The position numbers and the translations under genes were made by a program. Of a stretch of 49,804 nucleotides of DNA, positions 163 to 41,683 are shown piece after piece; within the stretch, counting starts at the first letter, position 1; each line of letters opens with the position of its first letter. The notes under the pieces are model-generated. The model had not been told where the DNA came from. It ran no database searches and saw only the letters and a program-made list of their open reading frames with translations. Origin of the DNA: an uncultured Bacteroidales bacterium (GTDB taxonomy: Bacteria > Bacteroidota > Bacteroidia > Bacteroidales > Paludibacteraceae); NCBI GenBank assembly GCA_902799185.1, contig CADBZO010000007.1:68383-118186 (forward strand), written 5' to 3'.

Positions 163-1722
163 TCATGCCAAAGCGGCAATCTTCAGCGCGGCGTTGATGC
201 CGTCGAGGGCGGATGAGGTGATGCCTCCGGCGTATCCTGCTCCCTCTCCGCAAGGGTAGAGCAGCGGCGTAGAGACAGACTGAAGGGTCTCCGGATCCCG
301 TGTGATACGGACGGCACTGCTGCTGCGGCTCTCGACGCCTACAATCACTGCATCGTTGGTGAGGAAACCGGGGTATTTCTTATCGAAATCCCGAAATCCC
401 TGTTGCAGGCGTTTGCCTATGTGAGGCGGCAGCCATTGGTCCAGGCGGCTGGGTACAATGCCCGGCAGGTAGCTGCACGGCGGCAGGTCTTTGGAGGGCT
501 TGCCCTCTACGAAATCCCGCATCCGCTGCGCGGGAGCGACGGAGAATTGAGAATTGAGAGTTGAGAATTGAGAGTTATGAGCTTGCATAAATGCAAGCTG
601 CTCCAGTTCCTCTTGGAACGCCAGTCCCCTGAGCGGGTCGTTGCCGGGGATGTCCTCGGGGTTGATCTGGACCACCATGCCGCTGTTGGCGAAAGGGGAG
701 TTACGGTGGGACGCAGACATGCCGTTCACCACGCATGTCCCTTCGCTGCTGCCCGCCGGGACGATATGTCCTCCGGGACACATACAGAACGAATAGACGC
801 CCCGTCCCTCCACCTGCGTCACGAGGCTGTAGGAGGCGTTGCCGACATATTTGATAAGTGGGGAGGTTCGGTGGGGTTTTGACAGATGATACATCAGCCT
901 GTTGATTAACGCTTGTGGGTGTTCGATCCGCACACCCATCGCAAAGCCCTTGGTCTCCATCGCCACGCCTTCGGCGGCTAACATCCTGTAGGTGTCATGC
1001 GCCGAATGGCCGATGGCCAATATGATTGGTGTAGTTGAAAGTTGAAAGTTCTTATCTCGGCAAGGCCTCGAACGATCGGCTGAAGCTGTATGGAAAGTTG
1101 AAAGGGACTCGACTTTCGTTTCAAAGTGTATCTCTCCGCCGTGGGCGATGATGCACTCGCGCATTTTTTTGATGATACCGGGCAGTTTGTCGCTGCCGAT
1201 ATGCGCGTGTGCCTCATAGAGCACGGTGTCCGGTGCCCCGAAATAATGGAAGATCTCCATCACCCGTTGCATGTTTCCCCGCTTCTTGGACCGCGAAAAG
1301 AGTTTGCCGTCGGAGAACGTACCGGCACCTCCTTCGCCGAAACAGTAGTTGGACTCGGGGTTGAGTCCTTCGTTCCGGTTGAGCAGTGCTATGTCGCGTT
1401 TGCGGGCGCTGACCTCTTTGCCGCGCTCGTAGATGACCGGTTTGATACCCTGTTCTATCAGTGTCAGTGCGGCAAAGAGCCCTGCGGGACCGGCTCCTAT
1501 AATGATAGCGGAGCGGGCTGCGGAATGTACGTCCTGATAGACTGGCGGTTGGTAAGGGAGTTGAGAGTTTTTTTCGATGGGATTACCTTTCTCGTCAACT
1601 AAAACAGTTAGATGCACGTGCAACTCCCGTTGCCGTGCATCTACTGAACGTTTCACTACCCGCCATTGCTGCGCGGCTACGTACGCCTCGCGCGGAGAAA
1701 GTATGTATTGTCTGGTCTCCAC
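163..1722 (-). CDS. FAD-dependent oxidoreductase, COG2509 family
   Basis: 519-residue cytosolic flavoprotein of the uncharacterised COG2509 (FAD-dependent dehydrogenase) family. A dinucleotide-binding motif GAGPAG lies at residues 76-81, after an N-terminal domain of about 70 residues. The motif CFGEGGAGTFSDGKL follows, and a C-terminal segment GEGAGYAGGITSSALDG closes the FAD site. The substrate is unknown. The start is GTG at 1720-1722: there is a stop codon upstream in frame and no ATG between. It lies 26 bp downstream of recA and is probably co-transcribed with it. Odd: the frame contains two or three in-frame repeat insertions, one of 7-mers giving NSQFSTLNSQFS (540-577) and a composite one (1034-1104) just before the conserved TPIILAIGHSAHDTY segment. 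Confidence 0.88.
   Translation of the reverse strand: METRQYILSPREAYVAAQQWRVVKRSVDARQRELHVHLTVLVDEKGNPIEKNSQLPYQPPVYQDVHSAARSAIIIGAGPAGLFAALTLIEQGIKPVIYERGKEVSARKRDIALLNRNEGLNPESNYCFGEGGAGTFSDGKLFSRSKKRGNMQRVMEIFHYFGAPDTVLYEAHAHIGSDKLPGIIKKMRECIIAHGGEIHFETKVESLSTFHTASADRSRPCRDKNFQLSTTPIILAIGHSAHDTYRMLAAEGVAMETKGFAMGVRIEHPQALINRLMYHLSKPHRTSPLIKYVGNASYSLVTQVEGRGVYSFCMCPGGHIVPAGSSEGTCVVNGMSASHRNSPFANSGMVVQINPEDIPGNDPLRGLAFQEELEQLAFMQAHNSQFSTLNSQFSVAPAQRMRDFVEGKPSKDLPPCSYLPGIVPSRLDQWLPPHIGKRLQQGFRDFDKKYPGFLTNDAVIVGVESRSSSAVRITRDPETLQSVSTPLLYPCGEGAGYAGGITSSALDGINAALKIAALA
540..577. repeat. In-frame 7-mer array inside the flavoprotein gene
   Basis: Units ATTGAGA/GTTGAGA on the plus strand. Read on the gene strand they are stop-free and encode NSQFSTLNSQFS with a 7-residue period. 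The insertion separates conserved regions of the COG2509 protein. Confidence 0.8.
1034..1104. repeat. Composite repeat: 7-mers flanking a GC-rich insert, in frame
   Basis: GTTGAAA units at 1034-1050 and again at 1097-1103 flank about 45 bp of GC-rich sequence resembling the GACCGCTTCGCTG element of radA. On the gene strand the block encodes roughly STFHTASADRSRPCRDKNFQLST with no stop. Confidence 0.6.
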
Positions 1723-1748
1723 CGGTCCGGTAAGTTGTTAGTCCTCTT

Positions 1749-4390: not shown

Positions 4391-6346
4391 TTATTCTACG
4401 GTTAACCGGTTCTCTTTCACCCGGCTGATATACTGCTGGACAGTAGCCTGCAAGTAACGCAGCATGGCCTGCGGCTCAGGTTCTTCTATCCGCTCTTTGA
4501 GGTTCTGCTGTAATAGTCTGTCCTGTTGGAAATTATACAGCCCGGTCACCTCTTTCCCGTCAAACTGCAGGAGCAGAGAGTCGGAGAAAATCTGATAGAC
4601 AGGGTTGTTGTAGTTTACCACGTACGGCTCTTTCTTATCGGAGAGGAGCACGCTTTGACCGAAGGCGAAGTAGGGTTCGTCATAGCCGATATACTCCAAT
4701 ACGGAAGGCAGTATATCCGTTTGCGCCACGGGGTAGTTGCGCTCTCGCGTACGGACCGCCTCGTCCATCTGCGGGTCGAAGAAGATAATCGGTACTTCGT
4801 ACCGCCCTTTGTCGGTCGTATATTCCGGGTGGGTGAGGACGTTGGTATGGTCGGCGGTGAGGACAAACAGCGTGTTCCCGTACCAGGGTTGGGTCTTGGC
4901 ATAGGCAAAGAAGCGGCGCAGGGCGTAGTCGGTGTAGCCTATACAGCGGTGCAGAGGGTGTGTGCCCTCCGGGAAGACGCCTTCGTAGCGTTCGGGCACT
5001 TGGAAAGGGTGATGGCTGGTAGCCGTGAAGACGGCTGTCATGAACGGCTCCTGCATGGAACTCATCGTACGGCCGTAGAACTGCAGGAACTCCTCGTCCC
5101 AGATAGCCCAATAGCCGTCGTAGTCATCGTTGTTGTTGTATTCGTCCTTGCCGTAGTACGCGTCAAATCCGCAGGACCGGGAGTAAGCCTGAAAGCCCAT
5201 TGAGCCGTTCGGCGCCCCATGGAAGAAACCGGTCTGCCATCCTTTTTTGCCCAAATACGAAGCCAAAGAAGATACTTCGTCGGTGGAGTAGGGCGTCAGG
5301 ATATAAGGCGAGATAATCATCGGGATGGATGATAAGACGGACGGCATGGCGTCAATGGACTTGCGTCCGGTAGCCAGGCTCAGCGGGAAGGTCAGGGAGT
5401 GCGCCGCCAGCGAATCGAGGAACGGGGTATAGCCCTGATAGGTACCGCTGTCCAGGTCATGGTTGAAATAACCGAAATACTCTTTGGAGAAACTCTCCAA
5501 GATAAAGACCACTACGTTCTTTTGCTCCAGCGGCTTGCTTCCTTCGGGTTGGTGGACGGGAGTCATGATCGTCTCCAGTTCGTTCTCTTCAAAATACCGG
5601 AGATCAGGAAAGACCCGTCCTTCGGATGAGCGCATGAGCGCAAAAGGCGTATTGAGTACGATATTGGTTTCGTTGGGGCGGTTGGTGTACTGGAGTGCGT
5701 TGCTGAGCGTGATAGGGCGGGTGAAGGCGCCGAAACCTCCGCGGATGCCGATGACGATGAAATAGACGGAGAGGGCGAACAGCAGACTCTCGGTGCTGTA
5801 GTAGAGCGCAGGATGCCGGTTGTCGTCCGTTTCTACCGTCCGTCGTGTAAGGAGTACCATCAGCGCCAGCATGGCTATGCCAAAGAGCGTGACGTACCAA
5901 TACTGGAGGGCGGAGGTGAAGAAGATGTGCGCTAAGTTGCTGTCGTTCTGAAACTCCGTGAAGAACGTGACGGTCGTCCGCCGGCCGGTAAACTGCATGT
6001 ACACCATGTCGGCGCAGTTGACCGCTATCGCCAAGCCGTTGGGTATCCAGTAGAAAAACCGCGCAATCTGTTGGTAAACCGTGTTGCTGCGGAAACGGAA
6101 AGGCAGCAACTGCATCAGGAAATAGACGCTGTTGAGGTATAGCGAAGCCGTCAAGTCGAACCGGATACCGCCTGCCATCATCTCCAGCAAATGACTCATG
6201 CTGACATCCGGGTAGGTGCTCATGTTCGTGAGGTAGTAGAACAGGCGGGAGACGGACAGGATAGCCATCACCAGCAGCCAGTTGCAGACGGCTACTAACC
6301 AAGGGTGGTATTTGATGTTTGATATTTGATGTTTGATATTTGTCAT
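4391..6346 (-). CDS. LTA synthase/phosphoglycerol transferase-like sulfatase-fold membrane enzyme
   Basis: 651 residues with about five N-terminal membrane helices (roughly 15-36, 64-82, 100-118, 148-168, 185-203) and an external alkaline-phosphatase-fold domain from about residue 275. Metal and catalytic motifs: E284 in [23 protein letters not shown] around 328-336, where S330 aligns with the LtaS catalytic threonine; and TADHTN near 500. In Gram-negative bacteria relatives transfer phosphoglycerol or phosphoethanolamine to glycans or lipids; the substrate here is unknown. The first 13 residues ([11 protein letters not shown]) are encoded by a 7-mer array, and the ATG overlaps the pth stop as ATGA. 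Confidence 0.9.
6311..6343. repeat. 7-mer array encoding the N-terminus of the LTA-synthase-like protein
   Basis: Plus-strand units TTTGATG/TTTGATA, 4.5 copies. On the gene strand they read CAAACATCAAATATC with no stop and give [10 protein letters not shown] directly after the initiator Met. Confidence 0.85.
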
Positions 6347-6906
6347 TTTCCGTTAAACTGGTTCATGGTGCGGTCAATGCCGGCAAGGCAGAAAGAGGGG
6401 ATGATCTCGCTTGTCACTTTCAGCCGCTCGTCTATCTTCTTCTCTTCCTCTTCGGTCCAGCGGCCGAGCACAAAATTGATTTGTGCGCCGCGTGTGAACT
6501 CGTTCCCTATACCGAACCGCACGCGTGCGTATGCGTCCGTTCCCAATACCGATTGGATGTTGCCTAATCCGTTATGGCCTCCGTTGGAGCCTTGCTTGCG
6601 GATGCGGATAGTACCGAAAGGCAGGTTCAGATCATCTACCAGCACGAGCATATTCTCCACGGGTATCTTCTCCTGCTGGAGCCAATAGCGCACGGCGTTG
6701 CCGGAGAGGTTCATGTACGTGGAGGGCTTGAGGAGAACCATCTCCGCATTCTTCACCCGGCAGCGGGCTATAAAGCCGTAGCGTTTGTCCTCCCATTGTG
6801 CGTTGAGCGATTTGGCAAACGCATCGATCATCATAAAACCGATGTTATGACGTGTACCTGCGTACTCGTCACCTATATTTCCAAGTCCGACGATTAAGTA
6901 TTTCAT
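6343..6906 (-). CDS. pth: Peptidyl-tRNA hydrolase
   Basis: 187-residue Pth, which releases tRNA from peptidyl-tRNAs that drop off ribosomes. Residues matching the E. coli active site are N10 (VGLGNIG), H20 (GTRHNIG), N66 (STYMNLSG) and D91/D92 ([10 protein letters not shown]). Length is normal. Its stop overlaps the next gene's ATG (ATGA). It follows rplY across a terminator and a 7-mer leader array; the rplY-pth pairing is common in Bacteroidota. Confidence 0.97.
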
Positions 6907-6910: not shown

Positions 6911-6966
6911 AGTTGAGAGTTGAAAGTTTAGAGTTTAGAGAAGTTGAATAGTTGAAAGTTGAAAGA
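6911..6966. repeat. 7-mer array in the pth leader
   Basis: Plus-strand units GTTGAGA, GTTGAAA, GTTTAGA and GTTGAAT between the rplY terminator and the pth start. The orientation is leader-side, not translated. Confidence 0.75.
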
Positions 6967-7723: not shown

Positions 7724-7794
7724 TTGTCCACCGAGGAGTCGAACCTCGCTTCTCGGAACCAAAATCCGGTGTAATACCGATATACGAGTGGACA
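7724..7794 (-). tRNA. tRNA-Gln(UUG)
   Basis: Cloverleaf on the minus strand: acceptor TGTCCAC/GTGGACA with a U1-A72 pair; D stem GTA/TAC; anticodon arm CCGGA-TTTTGGT-TCCGA giving anticodon UUG; T arm CGAGG-TTCGACT-CCTCG; discriminator A. The 3' CCA is encoded (7721-7723). Its own 31-bp promoter lies 53 bp upstream, with a 7/8-mer array between. Confidence 0.96.
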
Positions 7795-7799
7795 ATACC

Positions 7800-7837
7800 A
7801 TTTACCATTTGGTCATTTACCATTTGATCATTTGGCA
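7800..7837. repeat. 7/8-mer array in the tRNA-Gln leader
   Basis: Alternating units CATTTAC and CATTTGGT/CATTTGAT (plus strand) between the tRNA-Gln promoter and the tRNA 5' end. Confidence 0.75.
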
Positions 7838-7948: not shown

Positions 7949-8839
7949 TCATTTCTTGAGCTGGAATGGGAAGGAGCCGATGAGGTTTCCCTCGCAGAAG
8001 AAATCCACCGTATAGAAGCCTTTCTGTACCTCCTCGACGGGGCAGAAGCATGAGCCCGCATAGGCCTCTCCGGTATATTCGAAGGCCTGGGTGAGCGAAT
8101 AGGGTATCTCGCCGCTCTCGAAGGGGAAGAGTTGTCCTTCCTTCTCGCCCAAAAGCAACCCCTCCGGATCCATCACGCGTACGTACAAGTCTTTCATACC
8201 CGGTTGGCAGGTGATATTCTTGGCGATGGTGAAGTCGAATTGGAGTTTGCGTATATGGCTCGTCATGCGGGTTTTGTGGTCGTTCTTGTTGAGTGGCGTG
8301 ATCTCACAAGCGGTGATCTCCAGCATGGAGGCGCGTGTGACAGTCTCCGAGAGTTGAGAGTTAAGCGTTGATAGTTGAGAGTTTTGCTCCTTGACCTGCT
8401 GGTTCTCCCGACGGACGATTTGGTTCTCCTCCGTGAGACGTGCGTTGGTGGCGTTGAGCGAATCGATCTGGCGAACGTAGTCTTTCATCACCATCCGGAC
8501 GGTAGCCAGTTCTTTTTTCAACTCCGCTATACGGCGGGCGTTGGAGGCTTTGGTCTGACGCAGTTCCTCCAGCAGGTCCTGCACGCGTTGCTGCTCGCGG
8601 GAGAGGAGGTCCTGGAGGCTGTCGTTGCGGATATCCATCTGCTGGAAACCGTCAAACTGGATAGCCAGGTCTTCGTACTCTTCCTGCAACTCCTCTTTCT
8701 CGATGGTCATCTGCTCCACCATTTCGTTTAACTCGCTTCGCTGGGTGAGGTTCCAGACGACCAGACCGCAGATGATGAGTACCAGTGCGGTGACAAGGAT
8801 CCAGGTATTCGATTTCTGTATTTTCTTTTTCTCTGTCAT
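7949..8839 (-). CDS. Membrane-anchored coiled-coil protein, function unknown
   Basis: 296 residues. One membrane helix at about 12-30 (WILVTALVLIICGLVVW) is followed by a long periplasm-facing coiled coil (about 35-165, rich in E, Q and L heptads). A compact C-terminal domain (about 170-296) contains LDFTIAKN-like strands, a YVRVMDPEG motif and FFCEGNLIGSFPF. I do not recognise a named family. It overlaps the end of murF by 4 bp (ATGA), suggesting an envelope-related role. A 7-mer array at 8351-8385 encodes NSQLSTLNSQLS (about 153-164) and keeps the 7-residue coiled-coil period. Confidence 0.8.
   Translation of the reverse strand: MTEKKKIQKSNTWILVTALVLIICGLVVWNLTQRSELNEMVEQMTIEKEELQEEYEDLAIQFDGFQQMDIRNDSLQDLLSREQQRVQDLLEELRQTKASNARRIAELKKELATVRMVMKDYVRQIDSLNATNARLTEENQIVRRENQQVKEQNSQLSTLNSQLSETVTRASMLEITACEITPLNKNDHKTRMTSHIRKLQFDFTIAKNITCQPGMKDLYVRVMDPEGLLLGEKEGQLFPFESGEIPYSLTQAFEYTGEAYAGSCFCPVEEVQKGFYTVDFFCEGNLIGSFPFQLKK
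8351..8385. repeat. In-frame 7-mer array in a coiled-coil gene
   Basis: GTTGAGA-type units (plus strand) encode NSQLSTLNSQLS on the gene strand. Three 7-mers equal seven codons, so the insert adds whole heptads to the coiled coil. Confidence 0.8.
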
Positions 8840-10119
8840 AATAAAGGAAGTATCTTTTCCATTTGGTTCGAACGGCTGCCTTTGAGCAAGATACGGTATC
8901 CTGCGAGCGGTTCGCGGCTCAGGTAGTCGTACAGTGTTTCGATATTTTCATAAACGGGGTATGGTGCGGTAGTCTCCTTGTACTCCGGACCGACGAGGAA
9001 CACGTTCTCCGCCTTGCGTTCCAGCAGCATGTTAACGATATTCTGGTGCTCGCGGTGGCTGTATTCGCCCAGTTCGCGCATGGCTCCCAAGATATAGGCC
9101 TTCGGCATTTGAGATTGGATATCCGACATTTGATATCGGTCAAAAGCCTCGATAGCCGCCTGCATGGAAGTGGGGTTGGCGTTATAGGCATCCACGATGA
9201 CGGTATTCTTCTCCGTCTGCATGAGCTGGGAGCGGTTGTTGGACGGCACGTACTCACATATAGCCTCGCGGCTCTCAGGGAAAGTGCAAACCATACACAT
9301 GCCGATGGCAAATGCAGCGGCAATGTTCTCCTGGTTATAACCACCTACCAGATGCGTCTCTGACACCTTAACCGGGCAATCCGATGAACGATAGCGGAAC
9401 AATCCTATTCCTTTGTCGGAACCGGGAGAGTAGACCTCGTTGTACCAATGAATCTTGTTGAATTTGTTACGGATGGTCTTGCGTCCTTTGGGCAGACGTT
9501 TCTTCAACATTTTGCAAAGATACGGGTTCTCTGCATTGTAGAAGATTGTTCCTCCATGCGCAATAATCCAATCGTATAACTCACCTTTCGTTTGCTGTAC
9601 TCCTTCGAAGGACCCGAAGCCCTGTAAGTGCGCTTTGCCTACATTTGTAATCAGCGCGTCGGTAGGCTCCGCAATTTCCACCAGTTCTTTGATATCTCCC
9701 GGGTGGGAAGCCCCCATCTCGATAATTGCTATCTCATGCGCACGCGTGATAGATAATAAGGTGAGGGGTACGCCGAGTTGGTTGTTGAGATTGCCTTGGG
9801 TATAGCATACGTTATACTTCTTGCTCAACACAGCAGCCGTCAGTTCCTTGGTAGTGGTCTTTCCGTTGGTGCCGGTGATGGCAATAACCGGAATTCTAAA
9901 CTTGCGTCTCCACGCGCGTGCGAGGTCTTGTAACTCAGCTAAAGCATTTTTGCCGGAGATGATATATTCCGCGCCGTCGGCTTTCGCCTGCTCTACGAAG
10001 TCATTGCCGTCAAAATGCTCTCCTTTGAGCGCCACAAAAACAGAGCCGGGAGTGACCTTCCGGCTGTCTGTTGTGACGGTAATGGAATCTTTATTTTTTA
10101 TTAGGAAGTTCCAGTCCAT
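8836..10119 (-). CDS. murF: UDP-MurNAc-tripeptide:D-Ala-D-Ala ligase
   Basis: 427-residue cytosolic Mur ligase that adds D-Ala-D-Ala to the peptidoglycan precursor. The P-loop GTNGKTT is at residues 83-89. The central-domain motif EMGASHPGDIKELV and the C-terminal ligase motif DAYNANPTSMQAAI are present. A 7-mer-like stretch (9105-9139) encodes YQMSDIQSQMP in the C-terminal domain, directly before AYILGAMRELG. It is flanked by an MFS transporter upstream (2-bp gap) and the coiled-coil gene downstream (4-bp overlap). Confidence 0.96.
   Translation of the reverse strand: MDWNFLIKNKDSITVTTDSRKVTPGSVFVALKGEHFDGNDFVEQAKADGAEYIISGKNALAELQDLARAWRRKFRIPVIAITGTNGKTTTKELTAAVLSKKYNVCYTQGNLNNQLGVPLTLLSITRAHEIAIIEMGASHPGDIKELVEIAEPTDALITNVGKAHLQGFGSFEGVQQTKGELYDWIIAHGGTIFYNAENPYLCKMLKKRLPKGRKTIRNKFNKIHWYNEVYSPGSDKGIGLFRYRSSDCPVKVSETHLVGGYNQENIAAAFAIGMCMVCTFPESREAICEYVPSNNRSQLMQTEKNTVIVDAYNANPTSMQAAIEAFDRYQMSDIQSQMPKAYILGAMRELGEYSHREHQNIVNMLLERKAENVFLVGPEYKETTAPYPVYENIETLYDYLSREPLAGYRILLKGSRSNQMEKILPLL
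9105..9139. repeat. In-frame diverged 7-mer array in murF
   Basis: Diverged CATTTGA-type units; the gene strand reads CAAATGT, CGGATAT, CCAATCT, CAAATGC and encodes QMSDIQSQM without a stop. Confidence 0.6.
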
Positions 10120-12494: not shown

Positions 12495-13037
12495 TTATTT
12501 TGCTCCTAATTTCTGGAGAACCTGATCGGAGATGTCGAGTTTGGAGGACATGTAGATCAGTGCGGGGTCTGCGGAGCGGTCCTTGACGATGTCTATACGT
12601 TTCTCGCTGGCGACGTCCTGAATGGCGGTGTATATCTCATCCTGGATGGGTTTGATGAGTGCCTCGCGTTTTTTGTACAGCTCGCCATCCTGTCCGAAAT
12701 ACTTGCGTTTGAGTTCCAGGACCTCCTGCTCTTTCTTCACTATCTCCTGTTCGCGTTGTGTGCGCATGTTTTCGGAGAGGAAGATCTGCTCTGTCTGGTA
12801 GTTGGTAGCCATGACACGTGCTTCCTGCTGGGCAGCGTCAATCTCTTTCTGCCAGCGTTTGGAGAGCATCGTGAGCTGTTCGTTCGCCTGCTCGTACTGG
12901 GCCAGGTTTTTGAGTATATAAGCCATGTCGATATAGGCTATCGGTTGATCTTTAGCAAAAGCCGTGCCAGAAATCAAAAGGCAACACAAAAGCAGTTGCC
13001 ATTTGATATTTGAAATTTGAGATTTTAGATTTGACAT
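12495..13037 (-). CDS. OmpH/Skp family periplasmic chaperone (copy 1)
   Basis: 180 residues with the OmpH pattern: strand PIAYIDMAYILKNLAQYEQAN, a central coiled coil, and C-terminal strand RIDIVKDRSADPALIYMSSKLDISD typical of the first OmpH after bamA. The export signal is unusual. Its n-region (SNLKSQISNIK) is encoded by a 7-mer array, with the hydrophobic core QLLLCCLLISGTAFA after it. It lies 17 bp downstream of bamA. Confidence 0.93.
   Translation of the reverse strand: MSNLKSQISNIKWQLLLCCLLISGTAFAKDQPIAYIDMAYILKNLAQYEQANEQLTMLSKRWQKEIDAAQQEARVMATNYQTEQIFLSENMRTQREQEIVKKEQEVLELKRKYFGQDGELYKKREALIKPIQDEIYTAIQDVASEKRIDIVKDRSADPALIYMSSKLDISDQVLQKLGAK
13001..13035. repeat. 7-mer array encoding a signal-peptide n-region
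   Basis: Plus-strand units ATTTGAT, ATTTGAA, ATTTGAG, ATTTTAG and ATTTGAC. On the gene strand they supply the initiator ATG and NLKSQISNIK. Confidence 0.85.
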
Positions 13038-13054
13038 TTTTATCTGTATTTACA

Positions 13055-23587: not shown

Positions 23588-23596
23588 AATAACAGA

Positions 23597-23640: not shown

Positions 23641-23665
23641 CTAATTTCAGGAAACTAAAGGCTTG

Positions 23666-26188: not shown

Positions 26189-26199
26189 ATGTGTCTGTT

Positions 26200-26228
26200 C
26201 ATTTTTCACTTTTCACCTTTTATCTTTT
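26200..26228. repeat. 7-mer array at the end of xerD
   Basis: ATTTTTCACTTTTCACCTTTTATC (18-mer-plus run of 7-mer units) spans the xerD stop and encodes its last residues KKIKGEK. It also gives the 17-bp spacer to the next gene. Confidence 0.7.
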
Positions 26229-27153: not shown

Positions 27154-27704
27154 AGTTGTAACGAGTCCCGGAAATGGCATTCGTAGGTAGCGGAGCGGTT
27201 CTCCGCGTTGGTATAGACCAGCGTGAAGGAGAGGCGGGTGAGACCGCCGGTGGTGTCCTGCACGGTGAATGAACCGGAGTCGAAAAGCTGATAAGAAATC
27301 AGTTTGCCGTCCTCAATCTTCAAGAGGTACGCACCATGGGGCGTGCCTTCGAAATCCCGGCCGGGAAGGAAGGTGAAGGGATAGTTGAGAGTGGAGAGTT
27401 GAGAGTTGAGAGGTAGTGAGGTGTATTCGCCCAAAGCAAGCGTATCGCCGGGAACGAAGATGTCCGACAGGTAGAGGTTGTAGCCTGTGCCCTGCATGCG
27501 GCGAGTGGTTGTATCGAGTGTCAACCCTTCGGAATAGAGGTCGAGAGAGACTACGGCGCAGGGTATCGAGTCATAGCAACGCCCGTGACGCTCCTCCCAA
27601 CCGGAAGTGTATTGGTCGGGGAAAATATTGGGCGAGACATATGTCTTCCTGGGATTGCAGGCAGCAAGCGCTACCAGAACTATGAGAGGGAGGAGTTTTT
27701 TCAT
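27138..27704 (-). CDS. Lipoprotein of unknown function
   Basis: 188 residues from ATG 27702-27704. The lipobox LVALAAC has acylated Cys16. The mature part begins NPRKTYVSPNIFPDQY, and the C-terminal half is beta-rich (SFTVQDTTGGLTRLSFTLVY). I do not recognise the family. A 7-mer array at 27381-27412 adds LPLNSQLSTLNYP in frame. The start overlaps the permease stop (ATGA), suggesting an envelope role shared with the LolC/E-like protein. Confidence 0.85.
   Translation of the reverse strand: MKKLLPLIVLVALAACNPRKTYVSPNIFPDQYTSGWEERHGRCYDSIPCAVVSLDLYSEGLTLDTTTRRMQGTGYNLYLSDIFVPGDTLALGEYTSLPLNSQLSTLNYPFTFLPGRDFEGTPHGAYLLKIEDGKLISYQLFDSGSFTVQDTTGGLTRLSFTLVYTNAENRSATYECHFRDSLQLWLKR
27381..27412. repeat. 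In-frame 7-mer array in a lipoprotein gene
   Basis: GTTGAGA/GTGGAGA units on the plus strand; the gene strand encodes LNSQLSTLN. This is nearly the same peptide as in the genes at 163 and 7949. Confidence 0.8.
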
Positions 27705-28915
27705 TGGATCGTAATCTTTTTGCTGGGGTACCATGCGGCTAACCATCCCAAGGCGAAGACCATCAAACCGACTAACAGTATATCCGGCGTTTGGACTTGA
27801 ACGGGGTAGGCGGAGATGACATAGTCGGCACCGGTGCCCAGTTTGAGCCATCCGTAGTGTTGCTGCCCCAAGCATACCACTACCCCTACTACCAGCCCGG
27901 CTATCGTTCCTAACACCGAGATGAGCCATCCCTCCAAGAGGAAAATGCGGCGGATGGCGGCCTCGTCGGCTCCCAGATGGGAAAGGATGCGGATATCGTC
28001 CTGCTTGTCAATGATAAGCATGGAGAGGGAACCGATGATATTAAAACTGGCTATGAGCAGAATGAAAACCAGCAATAGAAATGTCAGCAGCTTCTCAATA
28101 CGCAGGATCCGGAAGAAATCGTGCTGTTGCTCATAGCGGTCCAAAACCCGGTAGCCGGGCCCCAGGTGATTTGCTATTTGATATTTGATATTTGAGAGTT
28201 TGACGCCTTGTTTGGGTTGAATACGAAGGGCTGTGGCGGTGTGTTCGTCGTAGTCGAAGAGCCGCTGTGCAAGAGGCAGGGAGACGAGCATCAGCCGGTC
28301 GTCGTACTCAATCTGGTTCACGGCAAAGGTGCCGGCGATAAACGCGTGTTCATGGCGAAGCGACCGGTCGGGACGGAGCATATTCAGCTGTCCGGTCCGT
28401 TCGGGTGCGTAGAGGTGCAGCGCTCCCGTGAAATGGGCGTTGATACCTATCTGTGCTGCCAGGCCGCGCCCGAGTACAGCCCTGTCGAAAGCGCCGTCAT
28501 GGACGGAATAGAAACCATCGGTGATGATAGAGTCGATATGTGCTGTTGCCCTAAAAAGAGAATCCACCCCCATTATCCGTGCAGGGAGCTGGTGGTCTTT
28601 GTACCGGATAAGAGCGGTTTGCTCCAGTTGCATGGAGACGGCTTCGATATCTTCGCGCGCGCATAAAGAAACAACAGGCGCCGTGTCAGTGCGGAGGGTC
28701 TGCCCTTCCGCGGGCACGACGAGCAGCACCGGGTCGAACTCCGAAAACATATGTTCCACCAGTTCGCCAAAACCGTTCATGACGGATAACACGCATATCA
28801 TAGCTGCCGTGACGACAGCTACCGCAGCAGCACTGATTCCGGAAATAATATTGATGGCGTTGTGTCCTTTTTTCGAGAAAAGGTACCGCCAGGCGATGTG
28901 CGATTCGAGGCTCAT
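27701..28915 (-). CDS. FtsX-like ABC permease, LolC/LolE type
   Basis: 404 residues. One N-terminal helix (about 22-45, NIISGISAAAVAVVTAAMICVLSV), a large periplasmic domain (about 50-270), and three C-terminal helices (about 275-400) as in lipoprotein-releasing LolC/E and MacB-like permeases. The start SHIAWRYLFSKKGHNAINIIS is typical of Bacteroidota LolE. No ATPase partner is adjacent. A 7-mer array (28169-28202) encodes KLSNIKYQIANH in the periplasmic domain. It overlaps rbfA by 4 bp. Confidence 0.9.
   Translation of the reverse strand: MSLESHIAWRYLFSKKGHNAINIISGISAAAVAVVTAAMICVLSVMNGFGELVEHMFSEFDPVLLVVPAEGQTLRTDTAPVVSLCAREDIEAVSMQLEQTALIRYKDHQLPARIMGVDSLFRATAHIDSIITDGFYSVHDGAFDRAVLGRGLAAQIGINAHFTGALHLYAPERTGQLNMLRPDRSLRHEHAFIAGTFAVNQIEYDDRLMLVSLPLAQRLFDYDEHTATALRIQPKQGVKLSNIKYQIANHLGPGYRVLDRYEQQHDFFRILRIEKLLTFLLLVFILLIASFNIIGSLSMLIIDKQDDIRILSHLGADEAAIRRIFLLEGWLISVLGTIAGLVVGVVVCLGQQHYGWLKLGTGADYVISAYPVQVQTPDILLVGLMVFALGWLAAWYPSKKITIQ
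28169..28202. repeat. In-frame 7-mer array in the LolC/E-like gene
   Basis: ATTTGCT, ATTTGAT, ATTTGAT and ATTTGAG units (plus strand); the gene strand encodes LSNIKYQIAN. Confidence 0.85.
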
Positions 28916-29439: not shown

Positions 29440-29462
29440 GGGTTTTTAGTCAAAAAAGCGTG

Positions 29463-29493: not shown

Positions 29494-29528
29494 ATTTTTG
29501 AGCATTTTTTTTGCTTTTGGATGCATTT

Positions 29529-30098
29529 TTAGTCAAAAACCTCGGTCAAAATCTCCAAAGAGCGTGGGGATTCCCAGGTCTCTACATGTTCTGCAAAGTA
29601 GGCGCAAAGGCCTCGCAGCTGCTCTTGACGCTCGGCGCGTGTGGCGGGGGTGGTGAAGAGCGGATGCGTCTCTTCCAGTGCAAAACCCAACCGTGCCGCA
29701 AAGGCTATCAGGAAATGTACGTGGAAATTCTGCGGCTCGTCGGTCTCATCCAATGCCTGTATGGCGTTGGCCAGGAAATCGAACATCGCCTCGTCCGGCA
29801 TGGGGTGGCGCAGTACGTGGTACAGCACTTCGCCCAAGAACAGCGCCACGGTGCGTTTGTACGGGTCGGTGGTAGTCGTCGCGGGCACGAATGACAGTTG
29901 CGCCGTGCGGAGAGAGCGTTGGTCGGTAGTCAGTTGCAGCAGCGCAAGCGGGGAATACAGTCCGGCACTTTTCTTGCGCCCCAGGCCATATACCTTATAG
30001 TTTACGCGCCCGCCTGTACGCGTGTATGCATGTAACAGGTGCGCCTGGTCCGATACCGGCTGTAACGACAGCACTATCGCATCAGTCGTGCTTAACAT
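29529..30098 (-). CDS. recO: DNA repair protein RecO
   Basis: 189 residues from ATG 30096-30098. N-terminal OB fold (LSTTDAIVLSLQPVSDQAHLL, RTGGRVNYKVYGLGRKKSAG), then a helical domain. RecO helps load RecA at gaps. It is shorter than the typical 240 residues and no Cys4 zinc site is visible. The start overlaps the phosphoesterase gene by 17 bp. A TTG further upstream would extend the frame but ATG is favoured. Confidence 0.9.
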   Translation of the reverse strand: MLSTTDAIVLSLQPVSDQAHLLHAYTRTGGRVNYKVYGLGRKKSAGLYSPLALLQLTTDQRSLRTAQLSFVPATTTTDPYKRTVALFLGEVLYHVLRHPMPDEAMFDFLANAIQALDETDEPQNFHVHFLIAFAARLGFALEETHPLFTTPATRAERQEQLRGLCAYFAEHVETWESPRSLEILTEVFD

Positions 30099-31506: not shown

Positions 31507-31540
31507 TAATTACGAATTAAAAATTAAAAGTTACGAATTA
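31507..31540. repeat. 7-mer-like AT-rich array between pgk and DUF3127
   Basis: AATTACG, AATTAAA, AATTAAA, AGTTACG and AATTATT units; it begins in the pgk stop codon. Confidence 0.7.
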
Positions 31541-36604: not shown

Positions 36605-36638
36605 CAATTATCAATTATCAATTGTCAATTATCAATTT
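36605..36638. repeat. 7-mer array between ddl and the prenyl synthase
   Basis: CAATTAT, CAATTAT, CAATTGT, CAATTAT units; the ddl stop codon lies inside it. Confidence 0.85.
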
Positions 36639-37714
36639 GAGAACTTGTTCTCAATAATATCCGTCAGTACGTCCTTTATGTCCAGTCCGGCAGCGCGCAC
36701 CTGCTGCGGGATAAAACTCGTGGCGGTCATGCCCGGCGTGGTGTTGACCTCCAGAAGGTTGATCTGTATCTTGCTCATGTCATCCACAGGGTCCACGTAT
36801 TCCTCGGTGTTGCGCATGCCGGTGATGATCCAGTCCACGCGGATGATGCCGTTGGCGCCGATGATGTCGTAGATACGGAGCGTGTTGGCCTGTATCCGGT
36901 CGCGGATGGCGTCCGGGATACGTGCCGGAGTGATCTCGCTCACCTGACCTTTGTATTTGGCGTCGTAGTCGAAGAACTCATTCTTCGTCACTACCTCGGT
37001 GACGGGGAATGCCACCGCCTTCTCTTTCGTCTTATACACGCCGCAGGTCACTTCCGTGCCCTGCATATACGCCTCGCAGATGACTTCGTCTCCTTCTTGG
37101 AACGCGCGCTCGATAGCCGGGATAACAGCCTCCGCCGTCTTCACCTTCGTGCAGCCGAAGGACGAACCGCCTACGTTGCTCTTGATGAAACACGGGAAGC
37201 CGAGAGACTCGGCTATTTGTGATGTGAGATTTGAGATTAGGGATTTATACTCTGCCTTGCGGATGAGAACCGATTTGGCGATGTTGAATCCGAAGGGTGC
37301 CAGATAGTGGTTGCAGGTGTATTTGTTGAACGTGAGTGCAGCGGCTAATACGTTGCAGCACGAGTAGGGGAGCCCTATCATCTCCAGATAGCCCTGCAAC
37401 AGGCCGTTCTCGCCCGGCGTGCCGTGGATGGTGATATACGCGAAGTCGAACGTGTGCTTCACACCCTCGCGCGTAAAAGAAAAATCATTCTTGTCAATCG
37501 GGCAGGCACGCGCCAGCAGCTCGTCATTCAGCACGCCCTGCGTGCGGCTCAGTTCTTCATTCGCAACCGCCTTCCAATCCTTCCCCTTGAGCACTACGAT
37601 AGCAACGTCGTAGCGCTCCTTATCCATAAAGGAATACAGGCCTGCTGCAGAGCGCAGCGACACCTCGTGCTCGCTGCTGTCTCCTCCGGCAATAATGGCT
37701 ATATTACGTTTCAT
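36632..37714 (-). CDS. ddl: D-alanine--D-alanine ligase
   Basis: 360-residue ATP-grasp ligase supplying the dipeptide for MurF. N-terminal AIIAGGDSSEHEVSLRSA, central GGSSFGCTKV, and C-terminal LLEVNTTPGMTATSFIPQQ are complete. A 7-mer array (37213-37246) encodes KSLISNLTSQIAES in the central domain, directly before LGFPCFIKSNVGG. Its promoter overlaps the sufB terminator. Confidence 0.96.
   Translation of the reverse strand: MKRNIAIIAGGDSSEHEVSLRSAAGLYSFMDKERYDVAIVVLKGKDWKAVANEELSRTQGVLNDELLARACPIDKNDFSFTREGVKHTFDFAYITIHGTPGENGLLQGYLEMIGLPYSCCNVLAAALTFNKYTCNHYLAPFGFNIAKSVLIRKAEYKSLISNLTSQIAESLGFPCFIKSNVGGSSFGCTKVKTAEAVIPAIERAFQEGDEVICEAYMQGTEVTCGVYKTKEKAVAFPVTEVVTKNEFFDYDAKYKGQVSEITPARIPDAIRDRIQANTLRIYDIIGANGIIRVDWIITGMRNTEEYVDPVDDMSKIQINLLEVNTTPGMTATSFIPQQVRAAGLDIKDVLTDIIENKFSN
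37213..37246. repeat. In-frame 7-mer array in ddl
   Basis: The gene strand reads AAATCCCTAATCTCAAATCT and onward, encoding SLISNLTSQIA before a conserved ATP-grasp motif. Confidence 0.75.
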
Positions 37715-37740
37715 CTGATAATAAATTCACAATTTGGCTG

Positions 37741-37771
37741 CAAAGTTACTAAAAAAAAACGACATACGCAA
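37741..37771 (-). promoter_or_regulatory. ddl promoter, conserved 31-bp type
   Basis: -33 TTGCGTATGTC, G then a T9 tract, and -7 TAACTTTG followed by CAGCC. TTG to TA is 23 nt. Confidence 0.88.
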
Positions 37772-37782
37772 GAGCGTACGCC
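37751..37782 (-). terminator. sufB terminator overlapping the ddl promoter
   Basis: On the minus strand GGCGTACGC pairs with GCGTATGTC (two G-U pairs) around loop TCTT, followed by G and nine T. The 3' arm and T tract are the ddl -33 box and spacer. Confidence 0.8.
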
Positions 37783-37809
37783 ATTTTTTTAGCGATTTTT
37801 CTTGTCTGG

Positions 37810-39261
37810 TCATCCTACGGAGCCTTCGAGGGAGACTTGGAGGAGTTTCTGGGCTTCGACGGCGAACTCCATCGGCAGTTTGTCCATCACCTCTTTGGCG
37901 TAGCCGTTGACAATCAGACCAACCGCGTCCTCCATACCTATACCGCGTTGCTGGCAGTAGAAGAGCTGGTCCTCGCTGATCTTGGAGGTCGTGGCCTCGT
38001 GCTCCACGGTAGCCGTGGGGTTGGAGATGATCATGTCCGGGAAGGTGTGTGCACCGCATTGGTCGCCCAGCAGGAGCGAGTCGCACTGGCTGTAGTTGCG
38101 GGCGTTCTCGGCGTGGAGACCCATCTTGACCAAGCCGCGGTAGGCGTTCTGGCTGTGGCCGGCGGAGATACCTTTGCTGATGATCCGCGAGCGGGTGTTT
38201 TTGCCTATATGGATCATCTTCGTGCCGGTGTCCGCCTGCTGGTAGTTGTTCGTCACCGCCACCGAGTAGAACTCCGCCGACGAGTTGTCGCCGCGCAGGA
38301 TACAACTCGGGTATTTCCATGTGATGGCGGAGCCGGTCTCTACCTGGGTCCAAGAGAGACGTGCGTTCTCATAGGTGATACCCCTTTTGGTAACGAAATT
38401 ATAGATACCGCCTTTGCCGTTCTTGTCACCCGGGTACCAGTTCTGTACGGTGGAGTATTTGACCTCTCCGTCCTTATGCACGATAATCTCCACGATAGCG
38501 GCGTGAAGTTGGTTCTCGTCCCTCATCGGCGCCGTACAGCCCTCCAGATAAGAGAGATACGCCCCCTCGTCGGCGATGAGCAGCGTGCGCTCGAACTGAC
38601 CGGTGTTGCCGGCGTTGATACGGAAATAGGTGCTCAGTTCCATGGGGCAGCGGACGCCTTTCGGCACATAGACGAACGAACCGTCGGAGAAGACGGCGGA
38701 GTTCAGCGCCGCATAGAAATTATCCGTCGGGGGAACTACCGAACCGAGGTATTTCTTGACCAAGTCGGGGTGCTCGCGTACCGCCTCGGAGATGGAGCAG
38801 AAGATGATTCCTTTTTCCGCCAGCGTTTCGCGGAAAGTGGTCTTGACGGAAACGGAGTCCATAACCGCATCCACCGCCATGTTACCCACCAGCGCAGCCC
38901 GTTCCTCCAGCGGGATACCCAGTTTGTCGAAGGTCTTCATGATCTCCTCGTCGATCTCCTCGTCTTTCGACTTTTCGCTTTCGACTTTCGACTTTTTGGT
39001 CTTCGGCGCAGCGTAATAGGAAATAGCCTGAAAATCTATCTCGGGTATGTCGAGGTGCGCCCATGTGGGCACAGGCATGGTTTGCCATTTGCGGAAGGCT
39101 TTGAGCCTGAACTCCAGCAGCCACTCCGGCTCGCCTTTCTTCGCCGAAATCAGCCGGACGATTTCTTCGTTCAGCCCTGCCGGCACTACATCGGTCTCCA
39201 CGTCGGTGGTGAAACCGTATTTGTAGTCCTGCGTGGTAATATCTTCTATTATTGTATCCAA
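37810..39261 (-). CDS. sufB: Fe-S cluster assembly protein SufB
   Basis: 483-residue SufB scaffold subunit. [39 protein letters not shown] and the C-terminal [20 protein letters not shown] are strong signatures. No sufC, sufD or sufS lies within the window. The start is unusual. The best candidate is TTG (39259-39261), since no in-frame ATG exists between the upstream stop and the conserved N-terminus, and a 7-mer array lies exactly there. An array at 38963-38997 adds [14 protein letters not shown] in frame. Confidence 0.95.
38963..38997. repeat. In-frame 7-mer array in sufB
   Basis: CGAAAGT-type units on the gene strand encode [13 protein letters not shown]. Both orientations of this unit are stop-free. 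Confidence 0.8.
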
Positions 39262-39402: not shown

Positions 39403-39420
39403 AAAATCGCAAAGCGGGTG

Positions 39421-39451
39421 CAAAGGTAGTACTTTTTTTTGATATACGCAA
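39421..39451 (-). promoter_or_regulatory. tRNA-Cys promoter, conserved 31-bp type
   Basis: -33 TTGCGTATATC, an A8 tract, GTAC, and -7 TACCTTTG followed by CACC. TTG to TA is 23 nt. Confidence 0.88.
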
Positions 39452-39480
39452 ATATTTTGGCAAAAAAATGCAGTTATGCG

Positions 39481-40359
39481 TCAAAAAAGACTCAAATCAG
39501 CATCAGTAATCGTTCCTTTGGGGCGTTTTTTGCCCCGGGAAGGGGTTACTGGAGTACTCGGAGTGACCTGGGGCTTCCGGGTACTCGGAGTGACCTGTTT
39601 CGGAGCTAAGGCAGCGCGGATGATCTGCCGTGTCTGGTCGTCTGTCCATTTGCATTTGTCAACGATCCAGTCGAGGTAGGAGCGGTCGATACGCATCATC
39701 GACTCGCCTTTGTGCGCACCCTGGGTGAGGTAGTAATAACCGCCTCTCTTCGTCAGCCACCGGTCGAAGCAGATAAACCCGAACTCCTCCCGTTGCGCCC
39801 ATTCCCAGCCGTGCGCGGCTATCTGCGCCTTGAAGACCTCAATCGTCGCCATTACGTCGTCGAGCGAGTTATGCGCGCCCTCGAACGGATGGCCGTAATA
39901 CCGCGTGTAGGCGGAGGTGAGGTTGTTAGGCACCTTCTCGCCCGTCTCGGGGTCGGTCATCCCTGCGGTGTGGATGCGCTCCAGCAGCAGCGCGTCGTAC
40001 CAGGTACGGCCCTCGAAATCGAAGTCCAGCCCTAAGCGTTTGAGGTTGTAATGGAGGATAGGTGCGTCGTAGCCGTTGCCGTTATAGGAGAGGAAATCGC
40101 ATCCACGGGTGAAGGCGATGAAGTCGTCATAGACGCTCCTCAGTCCCACGCCGTGCTTTAACAGGAAGGACTTGGAGATATGATGCACCGCCTCCGCCTC
40201 GGCGGGGATGGTGAACTCCCCTTCCGGCAGGATATACCAGTCGCGCTGGTCGATGACGGACCAGTCGGAGGTCTCCACTTTTACCAGCGAGAGTTGGATA
40301 ATGTGCTCTTTCTGCACATCCAGACCCGTGGTCTCGGTATCAAAACAAACAAGGTTCAT
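39481..40359 (-). CDS. 3'-5' exonuclease, DnaQ-like
   Basis: 292 residues. DEDD exonuclease fold: FDTETTGLD at residues 6-14, SYNGNGYDAPIL in the middle, and HNSLDDVMATIEVF toward the C-terminal part of the domain. The C-terminal 60 residues are basic and Pro/Thr-rich with a tandem repeat (QVTPSTRKPQVTPSTPVTPS). The domain resembles the proofreading epsilon subunit; the substrate is unproven. Confidence 0.9.
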   Translation of the reverse strand: MNLVCFDTETTGLDVQKEHIIQLSLVKVETSDWSVIDQRDWYILPEGEFTIPAEAEAVHHISKSFLLKHGVGLRSVYDDFIAFTRGCDFLSYNGNGYDAPILHYNLKRLGLDFDFEGRTWYDALLLERIHTAGMTDPETGEKVPNNLTSAYTRYYGHPFEGAHNSLDDVMATIEVFKAQIAAHGWEWAQREEFGFICFDRWLTKRGGYYYLTQGAHKGESMMRIDRSYLDWIVDKCKWTDDQTRQIIRAALAPKQVTPSTRKPQVTPSTPVTPSRGKKRPKGTITDADLSLF

Positions 40360-40361
40360 GC

Positions 40362-40414
40362 GTCATTCGTAATTCGTAATTTTTAATTCGTAATTCGTCA
40401 TTCGTAATTCGTAA
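40362..40414. repeat. Longest clean 7-mer array: between rlmI-like and exonuclease genes
   Basis: Seven units of ATTCGTA with single changes (ATTTTTA, ATTCGTC). It runs right up to the methyltransferase stop. Confidence 0.9.
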
Positions 40415-41683
40415 TTATTCCACATAAAGCACCAGTCCCTTGAGGTACTCGCCTTCGGGGTGGTAGATATTGATCGGGTGATCCTGAGGCTGATGAAGTT
40501 GGTGTAGGATCCGTACCTTGCGTCCCACTTGCGCGGCGGCGGAGAAGACAGCCAGCCGGAACGCCTCTTTGTCCACTGCCTGCGAGCAGCTGAACGTAAA
40601 CAATATACCGCCCGGACGGATCATCTCTATCGCCTTGGCATTGATGCGCTGGTAGCCTCGGAGGGCGTTCTTCACCGCGTCGCGGTGCTTGGCGAAAGCC
40701 GGAGGGTCAAGAATAATGAGGTCGTACGTATGGCCTGCTGTTTTCTGCGCCGTGAGGTACTCAAACGCATCCGCGGCAACCGCGTTGTGGTTCTTGGCGT
40801 TCGGGAAATTCTTCGCTACATTGACATTCACCAGGTCAATCGCTTTCTGACTGACATCGACGGAATCGACCTTCTTGGCGCCGCCGCGGAGGGCGTAGAG
40901 ACTGAACCCGCCGGTGTAGCAGAACATATTCAGCACCTCTTTGCCGTTCGCGTACCGCTCCACGAGGGCGCGGTTCTCCCGCTGGTCGATGAAGAAACCG
41001 GTCTTTTGCCCTCTCAGCCAGTCGATGCGGAAAGAGAGACCGTTCTCCACACTCCAGAATTCCTCACTCCGGCTTTTGTCTTTGAGCGAAGCGGTCTTTT
41101 GACTTTCGACTAACCATCCTGTCTTTTCGCCTTCTATAGGTGCTTTGAAGGGCAGCGTGTCGTCGGATTTGTAATAGACGTTCTTCACCTGCGGCACAGC
41201 CGCTACAACGGCTTCCGCTATCTCTTTCCGGCTTACGTGCATGCCTACCGAGTGGGCCTGGATAACTGCCGTCTCGGCATACACATCTACAATCAGTCCC
41301 GGCAGAAAATCGCCTTCGCCATGGATGAGGCGGAAGGTGTTGTTGGGGGATCTGAGATTTGAGATTTGGAATTTGACATTTCTCACTAATCCCAATGATT
41401 CGCGTACTTGGTAGGCGGCACGGATGCGTTCGCCCCAGAAATCTGCCGGCAACGTCTCTACGCCGAACGCCAGGATACGTACGGCGATGGAGCCCACCTG
41501 CCAATGACCGACACCGAGGGGCTCGTCCGCTGCCGAACGGATAGCAACAACCTCGCCCTCCTCCGGTGCGTCGCCTCGGTGTTTCGCATCCAGCACCACG
41601 CGGGCAATAGCCCCGCTGAACACCCACGGGTGAAAACGCTTGAGCGATTCCTCTTTGTGAGGTTTGAGATAGATGGTGGTCAT
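40415..41683 (-). CDS. Class I SAM-dependent rRNA methyltransferase, RlmI family
   Basis: 422 residues. An N-terminal PUA-like domain (about 1-90), then a Rossmann methyltransferase with NMFCYTGGFSLYALRGGAKK (SAM site), SVDVSQKAIDL and the catalytic-loop LDPPAFAKHRDAVKNALRGY. RlmI makes m5C in 23S rRNA; whether this orthologue hits the same base is inferred. In-frame repeats: 7-mers at 41350-41384 (NVKFQISNLRSP) and a family B fragment plus 7-mers near 41083-41110 (ESQKTASLKDKSRSE). It overlaps the upstream gene by 4 bp. Confidence 0.92.
   Translation of the reverse strand: MTTIYLKPHKEESLKRFHPWVFSGAIARVVLDAKHRGDAPEEGEVVAIRSAADEPLGVGHWQVGSIAVRILAFGVETLPADFWGERIRAAYQVRESLGLVRNVKFQISNLRSPNNTFRLIHGEGDFLPGLIVDVYAETAVIQAHSVGMHVSRKEIAEAVVAAVPQVKNVYYKSDDTLPFKAPIEGEKTGWLVESQKTASLKDKSRSEEFWSVENGLSFRIDWLRGQKTGFFIDQRENRALVERYANGKEVLNMFCYTGGFSLYALRGGAKKVDSVDVSQKAIDLVNVNVAKNFPNAKNHNAVAADAFEYLTAQKTAGHTYDLIILDPPAFAKHRDAVKNALRGYQRINAKAIEMIRPGGILFTFSCSQAVDKEAFRLAVFSAAAQVGRKVRILHQLHQPQDHPINIYHPEGEYLKGLVLYVE
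41083..41110. repeat. Family B fragment beside a 7-mer in the methyltransferase gene
   Basis: GAGCGAAGCGGTC (reverse of GACCGCTTCGCTC) followed by a GACTTTC-type 7-mer, in frame. Confidence 0.6.
41350..41384. repeat. In-frame 7-mer array in the methyltransferase gene
   Basis: The gene strand begins AATGTCAAATTCCAAATCTC, close to the array that starts the gene at 13037; it encodes NVKFQISNLR. Confidence 0.85.

What the first reader, a model, noticed from the sequence alone, without database searches (positions are those of the whole stretch)
540..41384. In-frame 7-mer insertions in at least 12 genes, only in the stop-free orientation
Because 7 mod 3 = 1, each 7-mer is read in all three frames, so a unit containing TGA or TAA stops every frame. 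In all coding cases (genes at 163, 4391, 7949, 8836, 12495, 13055, 23774, 27138, 27701, 36632, 37810, 40415) the gene strand carries the stop-free orientation. They produce related peptides (NSQLSTLNSQ, NIKxQISN, FTFHLSP) in essential enzymes such as MurF, Ddl and BamA. The inserted peptides repeat every 7 residues.
Basis: partly seen in the sequence, partly recalled or inferred. Interest (0 to 1): 0.85.

Follow-up and report, generated by a model that had tools for sequence, protein, structure and literature searches.

The report
Seven-base repeats inside protein loops
A rumen bacterium and its relatives carry short runs of seven-base repeats that keep turning up, in frame, in loops, linkers and ends of ordinary housekeeping proteins, so that parts of otherwise conserved enzymes can differ completely between close relatives.

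Summary
The window is probably a rumen Paludibacteraceae genome (named relatives). Its period-7 arrays are real: 95 in a 450 kb sample against 0-19 for periods not multiples of 7. "Only stop-free inside genes" is true but forced: seven-base units are read in all three frames. Not all 12 cases are insertions: 7949 and the LolC/E-like gene are not (60/60 and 29/29 orthologues filled); RlmI-like, Ddl, gene 163, the lipoprotein and (in relatives) MurF are. In 79 relatives' loci all 33 arrays found in MurF lie in two loops, with differing units. Against a sister species, coding arrays keep their length, change by multiples of 3 (8/8 versus 6/19 elsewhere) or are replaced by unrelated sequence. A 42-bp (6x7) dispersed element lies in phase inside arrays. 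Best reading: array blocks spread and change in 7-nt steps, and purifying selection keeps the tolerable ones; how they spread is unknown. A new variant of known heptameric repeats.

The parts
542..576 (-). period-7 array (AATTCTC/AACTCTC sense) in FAD-dependent protein gene 163-1722, peptide NSQFSTLNSQFS
   Evidence: gapped or partial in 29 of 33 orthologues; same length in sister
1033..1050 (-). period-7 array (AACTTTC sense) in the same gene
   Evidence: sister has unrelated sequence here, length +15; 30 of 33 orthologues have residues here, of differing sequence
1051..1092 (+). 42-bp (6x7) dispersed element following the 1033 array in phase, translated within gene 163 (minus strand)
   Evidence: one of 6 copies in G000
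6311..6348 (-). array over the start codon of sulfatase-family gene 4391-6346 ([12 protein letters not shown])
   Evidence: identical in sister
6911..6940 (-). intergenic array upstream of pth (6343-6906)
   Evidence: largely replaced in sister
8349..8383 (-). array in gene 7949-8839 encoding a coiled-coil-like stretch NSQLSTLNSQLS (not an insertion)
   Evidence: 60 of 60 orthologues filled; same length in sister
9100..9141 (-). degenerate array, MurF loop DRYQMSDIQSQMPK
   Evidence: the same loop holds clear arrays in 21 of 79 relatives' loci
12993..13039 (-). array over the start of OmpH-like gene 12495-13037 (MSNLKSQISNIK)
   Evidence: replaced in sister; arrays at or near the same N-terminus in 13 relatives' loci
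15575..15608 (-). array in the signal-peptide region of BamA (13055-15661), SPFTFHLSP
26132..26157 (-). array in the N-terminal region of DUF5686 protein 23774-26209 (LSLFTFHVS)
26198..26228 (-). stop-bearing array at the end of Xer-like recombinase gene 26206-27180: last residues KKIKGEK and the stop
27380..27412 (-). array in the small lipoprotein-like gene (ORF 27138-27929; likely start 27704)
28169..28195 (-). array in LolC/E-like permease 27701-28915 (SNIKYQIAN), same length as orthologues
31508..31533 (.). intergenic array, absent in sister
36605..36637 (-). stop-bearing array supplying the stop codon of Ddl (36632-37714); one unit longer in sister
37215..37245 (-). array inside Ddl (KSLISNLTSQI), 4-5 extra residues against 29 of 30 orthologues
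38960..38995 (-). array in SufB 37810-39261 ([13 protein letters not shown]), open on both strands
40356..40416 (-). array between gene 40415-41683 and the start of gene 39481-40359; two units fewer in sister
41349..41381 (-). array in RlmI-like methyltransferase (NVKFQISNLRS), clean insertion; sister has an unrelated CGTACAT-type repeat there
43984..44029 (.). intergenic TATTAAT array; three units fewer in sister

Best explanation
These are dispersed heptameric tandem repeats of the kind known from cyanobacteria, Beggiatoaceae and Xanthomonas, which in this family also lie in many protein-coding genes. Array blocks arise at or are copied into many sites, lengthen and shorten in 7-nt steps, and are homogenised or replaced by other repeats. 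Purifying selection keeps only arrays that leave a working reading frame: a stop-free frame in sense, total length change a multiple of three, placed in flexible loops, linkers, signal peptides or termini. Arrays with the stop-bearing strand in sense survive at gene 3' ends, where they become the stop codon, or between genes. Shown: period, sites, frame preservation, unit-step changes, whole-block replacement between sister species, and arrays of different units at the same loops. Inferred: that 7-nt slippage drives the length changes, and that some form of copying or recombination between arrays spreads them. The machinery of spread is not identified.
For: Period 7 dominates whatever the unit: 95 arrays in 450 kb with 34 canonical units, against 0-19 for periods not multiples of 7, and 263 arrays in 68 of 80 relatives' loci. 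Selection: of 32 arrays inside genes none has all sense frames stopped, as it must be; 22 of 28 at gene ends have. Coding sequence is about 83% of the sample but wholly contains 35 of 95 arrays. Frame: coding intervals that differ in length from the sister differ by multiples of 3 in 8 of 8 cases, the others in 6 of 19 (one-sided Fisher p 0.0014); two coding arrays differ by exactly 21 nt, three units. Unit steps of +7, -14 and -21 nt at three non-coding or gene-boundary arrays of the window. Dispersal: unit pairs within the genome are alike (0-1 differences) in 17.1% versus 4.7% for shuffled units; in the relatives 13.6% within versus 8.6% between species, 1 of 300 permutations as high. Tolerated sites: 33 of 33 MurF arrays at residues 213-238 or 329-335, 10 of 11 RadA arrays at 41-49, 6 of 7 BamA arrays in the signal-peptide region; the modelled MurF 303-317 loop holds the only stretch of 3 or more residues below pLDDT 50 (306-311). 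G000 has MutS, so loss of MutS is not needed.
Against: No enzyme or intermediate was identified. Whole-loop replacement between sequences whose 500 bases upstream are 96-98% identical (MurF L015/L029, L028/L060) could also come from homologous recombination importing another allele; L015/L029 show extra differences next to the loop. RadA linkers with arrays are not longer than those without (median 52 versus 53 residues), and 7949 and LolC/E are same-length, so insertion does not cover every case. Gene calls are from a home-made caller. Only 36 of 105 arrays had a comparable sister interval. Some of the 19 non-coding intervals are counted twice; without the repeats it is 6 of 17, p about 0.003 by hand. 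Periods 8 and 11 are also raised in the relatives (67 and 64 arrays), so 7 is not the only favoured length.
Confidence: 0.62

Rival explanations
1. Pure local replication slippage: each array is born in place from a chance 7-nt duplication and expands; there is no dispersal between sites.
For: Period 7 regardless of unit; unit-step length changes; heptanucleotides were the most abundant category of long simple repeats in most genomes and polymerase contact length was proposed as cause (Mrazek 2007, as described in the introduction of PMC4679880).
Against: Units are shared between unlinked sites more than shuffled units would be, and more within than between species, though the second effect is modest and could be a species-specific slippage preference; arrays are swapped for unrelated repeats between sister species; the 42-bp element is present in one sister and absent in the other at an array.
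Confidence: 0.22
2. Homologous recombination of loop alleles: arrays are old variants and the swaps between close relatives are imports of short tracts from other species.
For: Extra substitutions beside the exchanged MurF loop in L015/L029; the same loop framework (D...MPKAY) is shared by many relatives.
Against: Does not explain how different units arose at one loop (7 unit clusters among 21 arrays), nor arrays at many unrelated genes and between genes; similar flanks with every unit changed (L024/L025) suggest in-place homogenisation.
Confidence: 0.25
3. Phase-variation loci: arrays are contingency repeats that switch genes on and off by frame-shifting.
For: Tandem repeats whose unit is not a multiple of 3, in coding DNA.
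Against: Coding intervals differ from the sister only by 0 or multiples of 3 (13 intervals after two were dropped); the genes include MurF, RadA and BamA.
Confidence: 0.05
4. The arrays are functional peptide segments kept for a benefit, for example flexible linkers or coiled coils.
For: NSQLSTLNSQLS in 7949 replaces a segment of like pattern in relatives; hydrophobic SPFTFHLSP-like stretches in signal-peptide regions of several proteins.
Against: The inserted sequence is not conserved between close relatives; 32 relatives have a compact 12-residue MurF loop.
Confidence: 0.06

Closest known systems
TAACTGA heptamer direct repeats of Beggiatoaceae, Cyanobacteria and five Bacteroidetes (MacGregor 2015, PMC4679880; abstract and sections 3, 9, 10, 15, 24 read)
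   Same: 7-nt tandem units; stops in all frames in one orientation, open in the other; stop-bearing repeats overlap gene ends, open ones lie inside ORFs, mostly at protein ends; indels mostly in 7-nt increments; one set lies in a PurC gene of a Bacteroidetes species
   Different: Unit TAACTGA is the consensus of 0 of 95 arrays here, which have 34 canonical units; here many arrays lie inside conserved enzymes, the same loops hold different units in different species, and sister-species swaps and a frame test are added
G-rich heptamers GGGAATC / GGGGA(T/C)T of Xanthomonas and Nostoc (Rehm 2015, PMC4692102; passages read)
   Same: Heptameric, under-represented in coding DNA, preferred near stop codons, extensive length and sequence variation between close relatives
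   Different: G-rich units with evidence of quadruplex formation; the units here have no G tracts of that kind
STRR heptamers of Calothrix (named in passages of PMC4692102 without that acronym) and SDR small dispersed repeats of Nostoc (Elhai 2008; recalled, paper not held)
   Same: Heptameric arrays with a small dispersed repeat embedded in them
   Different: Our embedded element is 42 bp (SDRs 21-27 nt as recalled), has no strong hairpin (z -1.0), and keeps the 7-nt phase
Rickettsia palindromic elements inserted in frame in genes (recalled; only a search listing seen)
   Same: Repeats inserted in frame in ordinary genes
   Different: RPEs are long palindromes (recalled); these are direct 7-nt repeats

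Membership tests
Heptameric long simple sequence repeats (STRR/LSSR kind) | 7-nt units in tandem, in excess over other unit lengths | tested here: met
Heptameric long simple sequence repeats (STRR/LSSR kind) | many dispersed sets per genome, patchy among relatives | tested here: met
   62 of 120 family genomes match a TTGA heptad pattern, G000 196 matches (backwards control 59), one genome (G019) more
Heptameric long simple sequence repeats (STRR/LSSR kind) | under-represented in coding DNA, copy number varies in 7-nt steps | tested here: met
TAACTGA repeats of Beggiatoaceae | unit TAACTGA | tested here: not met
   0 of 95 arrays have this consensus unit, 0 hold two exact copies in a row
TAACTGA repeats of Beggiatoaceae | mostly just upstream of start codons | tested here: not met
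   6 arrays overlap starts, 28 overlap ends, of 93 placed
Small dispersed repeats (SDR) of Nostoc, for the 42-bp element | 21-27 nt length (recalled) | tested here: not met
   42 bp
Small dispersed repeats (SDR) of Nostoc, for the 42-bp element | embedded within heptameric repeats (recalled) | tested here: met
   all 6 G000 copies (together) and the 4 copies in the sampled sister stretches have a heptamer-type unit on both sides, some sides only one or two units
Small dispersed repeats (SDR) of Nostoc, for the 42-bp element | conserved secondary structure (recalled) | tested here: inconclusive
   DNA fold z -1.01; too few variants for covariation
Phase-variable contingency repeats | length change shifts the reading frame | tested here: not met
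   8 of 8 changed coding intervals are multiples of 3; one sister genome only, within-population variation not tested

The most novel reading that the evidence does not exclude
A genome-wide, sequence-independent process that writes DNA in 7-nt steps, with phase-locked passengers such as the 42-bp (6x7) element, continually seeds and swaps short in-frame cassettes at a fixed set of tolerant loops and linkers. It thus diversifies housekeeping proteins (MurF, RadA, Ddl, RlmI-like) across a bacterial family and acts as a general source of new loops and new gene ends.
Probability: 0.15. Interest if true: 0.85.

Novelty: new variant of a known kind. Interest (0 to 1): 0.6.

Why it matters
In the papers seen here heptameric repeats are mainly intergenic features of a few lineages. 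Here they are also a recurrent source of indels in conserved proteins, with a built-in test of translation (frame-preserving length changes) and natural replicates (one MurF loop holding different units in many species). That makes two open questions testable: why bacterial long simple repeats favour 7 nt, and how small dispersed repeats add protein sequence without killing the gene.

Tried and rejected
Rejected: the orientation rule as evidence (tautology inside ORFs); phase variation; loss of MutS as the cause (G000 has MutS, as do 76 of 81 genomes searched); an RNA-family explanation (Rfam at gathering thresholds finds three tRNAs in the window); a hairpin-driven 42-bp element (weak fold); insertion as the rule for RadA (linker lengths equal in 43 loci measured).

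Led nowhere: the eight literature searches listed no paper on heptameric repeats in Bacteroidales proteins; MacGregor 2015 treats five Bacteroidetes. This covers the held open-access library and the listings only. The MurF coordinates in the first alignment script missed the loop and were redone. The script label 'unit_change' for 27380 and 37215 is automatic and wrong by eye; I count both as replaced. Two coding arrays (15575, 26132) were dropped from the mod-3 count because the compared interval runs past the gene start. Within the open-strand test, 'at least one open strand' exceeds all 300 shuffles but 'exactly one open strand' (71.6%, shuffle mean 58.6%) does not exceed the shuffle maximum of 72.6%.
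Full report
What was checked. A period-7 scan of the window at score 12 finds 14 arrays; periods 4-15 otherwise give 0-3 except 10 at period 14, a multiple; five Markov shuffles gave none. Tandem Repeats Finder agrees. The window lies in genome G000, contig 7. Its closest named relative among 80 loci returned is MAG RUG12032, uncultured Bacteroidales, with 98% MurF identity; many further relatives are titled Paludibacteraceae, mostly from ruminants, so the window is probably of that family. I call RUG12032 (G120) the sister.

Scale. In 449,804 bases of G000 (window plus 20 stretches of 20 kb) there are 95 period-7 arrays; periods 4-6, 8-13 and 15-20 give 0-19 each, 14 and 21 give 71 and 41 as multiples; 35 of the 95 lie wholly in coding sequence, which is about 83% of the sample. 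A second script placed 93 of them: 32 inside one gene, 6 over starts, 28 over ends, 27 between genes. A TTGA-heptad pattern is found in 62 of 120 family genomes; G000 has 196 matches, its backwards control 59, one genome (G019) has more, and in many genomes the control is as high as the pattern, so it is a rough index only.

Orientation. The informative part lies outside: 22 of 28 arrays across a gene end have all three sense frames stopped, against 0 of 32 inside genes, 0 of 6 at starts and 10 of 23 between co-directional genes. Two such ends are in the window (26198-26228, 36605-36637). Units with at least one stop-free strand are commoner than in letter shuffles (90.5% versus mean 71.6%, maximum 84.2% of 300), also between genes (87%, n=23); 'exactly one' open strand is not beyond the shuffles. 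Composition beyond single letters was not controlled.

Insertion or not. Orthologues from the same family were aligned. Clear insertion: RlmI-like 40415 (28 of 30 gapped). Partial or variable: 163 (542 site), Ddl (11 residues against 6-7 in 29 of 30), lipoprotein 27138 (2 orthologues), Xer C-terminus (4 aligned orthologues). Not insertion: 7949 and 27701. For MurF, 79 sequences were measured (window and 78 relatives; one more had no measurable loop and one locus no intact frame). The loop between NPTSM and the next conserved strand is 12 residues in 32 of them, all without arrays; 21 with arrays have median 23 (20-30), 56 without have median 12 (12-39), p 1e-5; two are in between. By eye several array-free long loops (L008, L039, L071) carry another repeat. 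Solved MurF chains 1gg4 and 4ziy lack nine residues there relative to L016.

Recurrence. In 79 relatives' loci 277 arrays (score 11) were found; those inside stop-to-stop frames homologous to window genes fall at fixed places: MurF 213-238 (12) and 329-335 (21), RadA 41-49 (10 of 11), OmpH-like N-terminus (13), BamA signal-peptide region (6 of 7), g16420 signal-peptide region (4), 7949 coiled coil (4 of 6), and one each before the start of MFS, OmpH1 and Rnz. RecA, DnaN, UppS, Nth, L25, Pth, Hsp15, FADox, X3534 and g19431 gave none, but some of these lie outside many of the loci. The 21 arrays of the second MurF loop fall into 7 unit clusters, the 12 of the first into 3, the 10 of RadA into 5; these are not counts of independent events. 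An AlphaFold2 model of L016 MurF (mean pLDDT 87.9) puts the second loop (303-317) between a helix and a strand, with the only stretch of 3 or more residues below 50 (306-311); the first array (about 212-223) covers a helix-strand connection and that strand.

Sister comparison. 36 of 105 arrays (score 11 or more) had a comparable sister interval. Of 15 coding ones, 5 are the same length and at least 80% identical, 2 differ by exactly 21 nt, 8 are replaced or absent. At 41349 the sister has a CGTACAT-type repeat; at C4:10571 it has a GTACAAA-type one where G000 has GTCGAAA. Length changes: 8 of 8 changed coding intervals (two others dropped) are multiples of three, against 6 of 19 others. In MurF, pairs whose 500 bases upstream are 96-98% identical have wholly different loops (L015/L029, L028/L060); L024/L025 (82%) keep the loop's flanks while every unit differs.

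A passenger. A 42-bp element (6 x 7) has 6 matches in G000 and none in 100 other family genomes at up to 2 mismatches to its 31-nt core, and 4 copies in the sampled sister stretches. In all ten a heptamer-type unit lies on either side in phase, though some sides hold only one or two units. One sister copy sits where G000 has a short uninterrupted array (AGTTGAGAGTT); the neighbouring units differ too, so it is not a bare 42-bp difference. One copy is translated inside gene 163. Other dispersed repeats also border arrays.

Reading. Known heptameric repeats (MacGregor 2015; Rehm 2015) show the same stop asymmetry, association with gene ends and 7-nt steps, so the kind is known. What I did not find described is the weight in coding DNA of conserved enzymes, different units at the same loops across species, frame-preserving change, and the phase-locked 42-bp element. 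The mechanism of spread remains inferred.

Noticed in passing
window 18391-18455: A different repeat (about 16 nt, AGACCGCTTCGCTGAC) is translated in the RadA linker (QRSGLSAKRSVSARSLSGEAGLPK); the linkers of L007, L023, L024, L039, L057 and L072 have closely similar residues, and other relatives carry heptamers there.
   Followed up: partly
window 22629-22702, 23579-23696, 29443-29540, 37724-37814, 39407-39483: Dispersed stretches with many short matches elsewhere in two relatives (54-55 matches in each in all).
   Followed up: no
G000 C11:19300-19380 and C1:96238-96313: An element of about 80 bp, 77-84% alike between copies, bordered by heptamer arrays.
   Followed up: no
G000 C1, about 110315-110340: A G/C-rich palindrome (CCCCGACCCCCTCTCAGAGGGGGAG) recurs next to heptamer arrays in G000 and its sister.
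   Followed up: no
window 7796-7834: Intergenic CATTTACCATTTGAT repeat beside the tRNA at 7724-7794 is replaced in the sister by an unrelated longer stretch.
   Followed up: no
window 43722-43801: A 15-nt tandem repeat (ATGGTAAATGAACAA, 5.4 copies) lies just after the gene ending at 43721.
   Followed up: no
L007-L086: Periods 8 (67 arrays) and 11 (64) are also in excess in the relatives.
   Followed up: no
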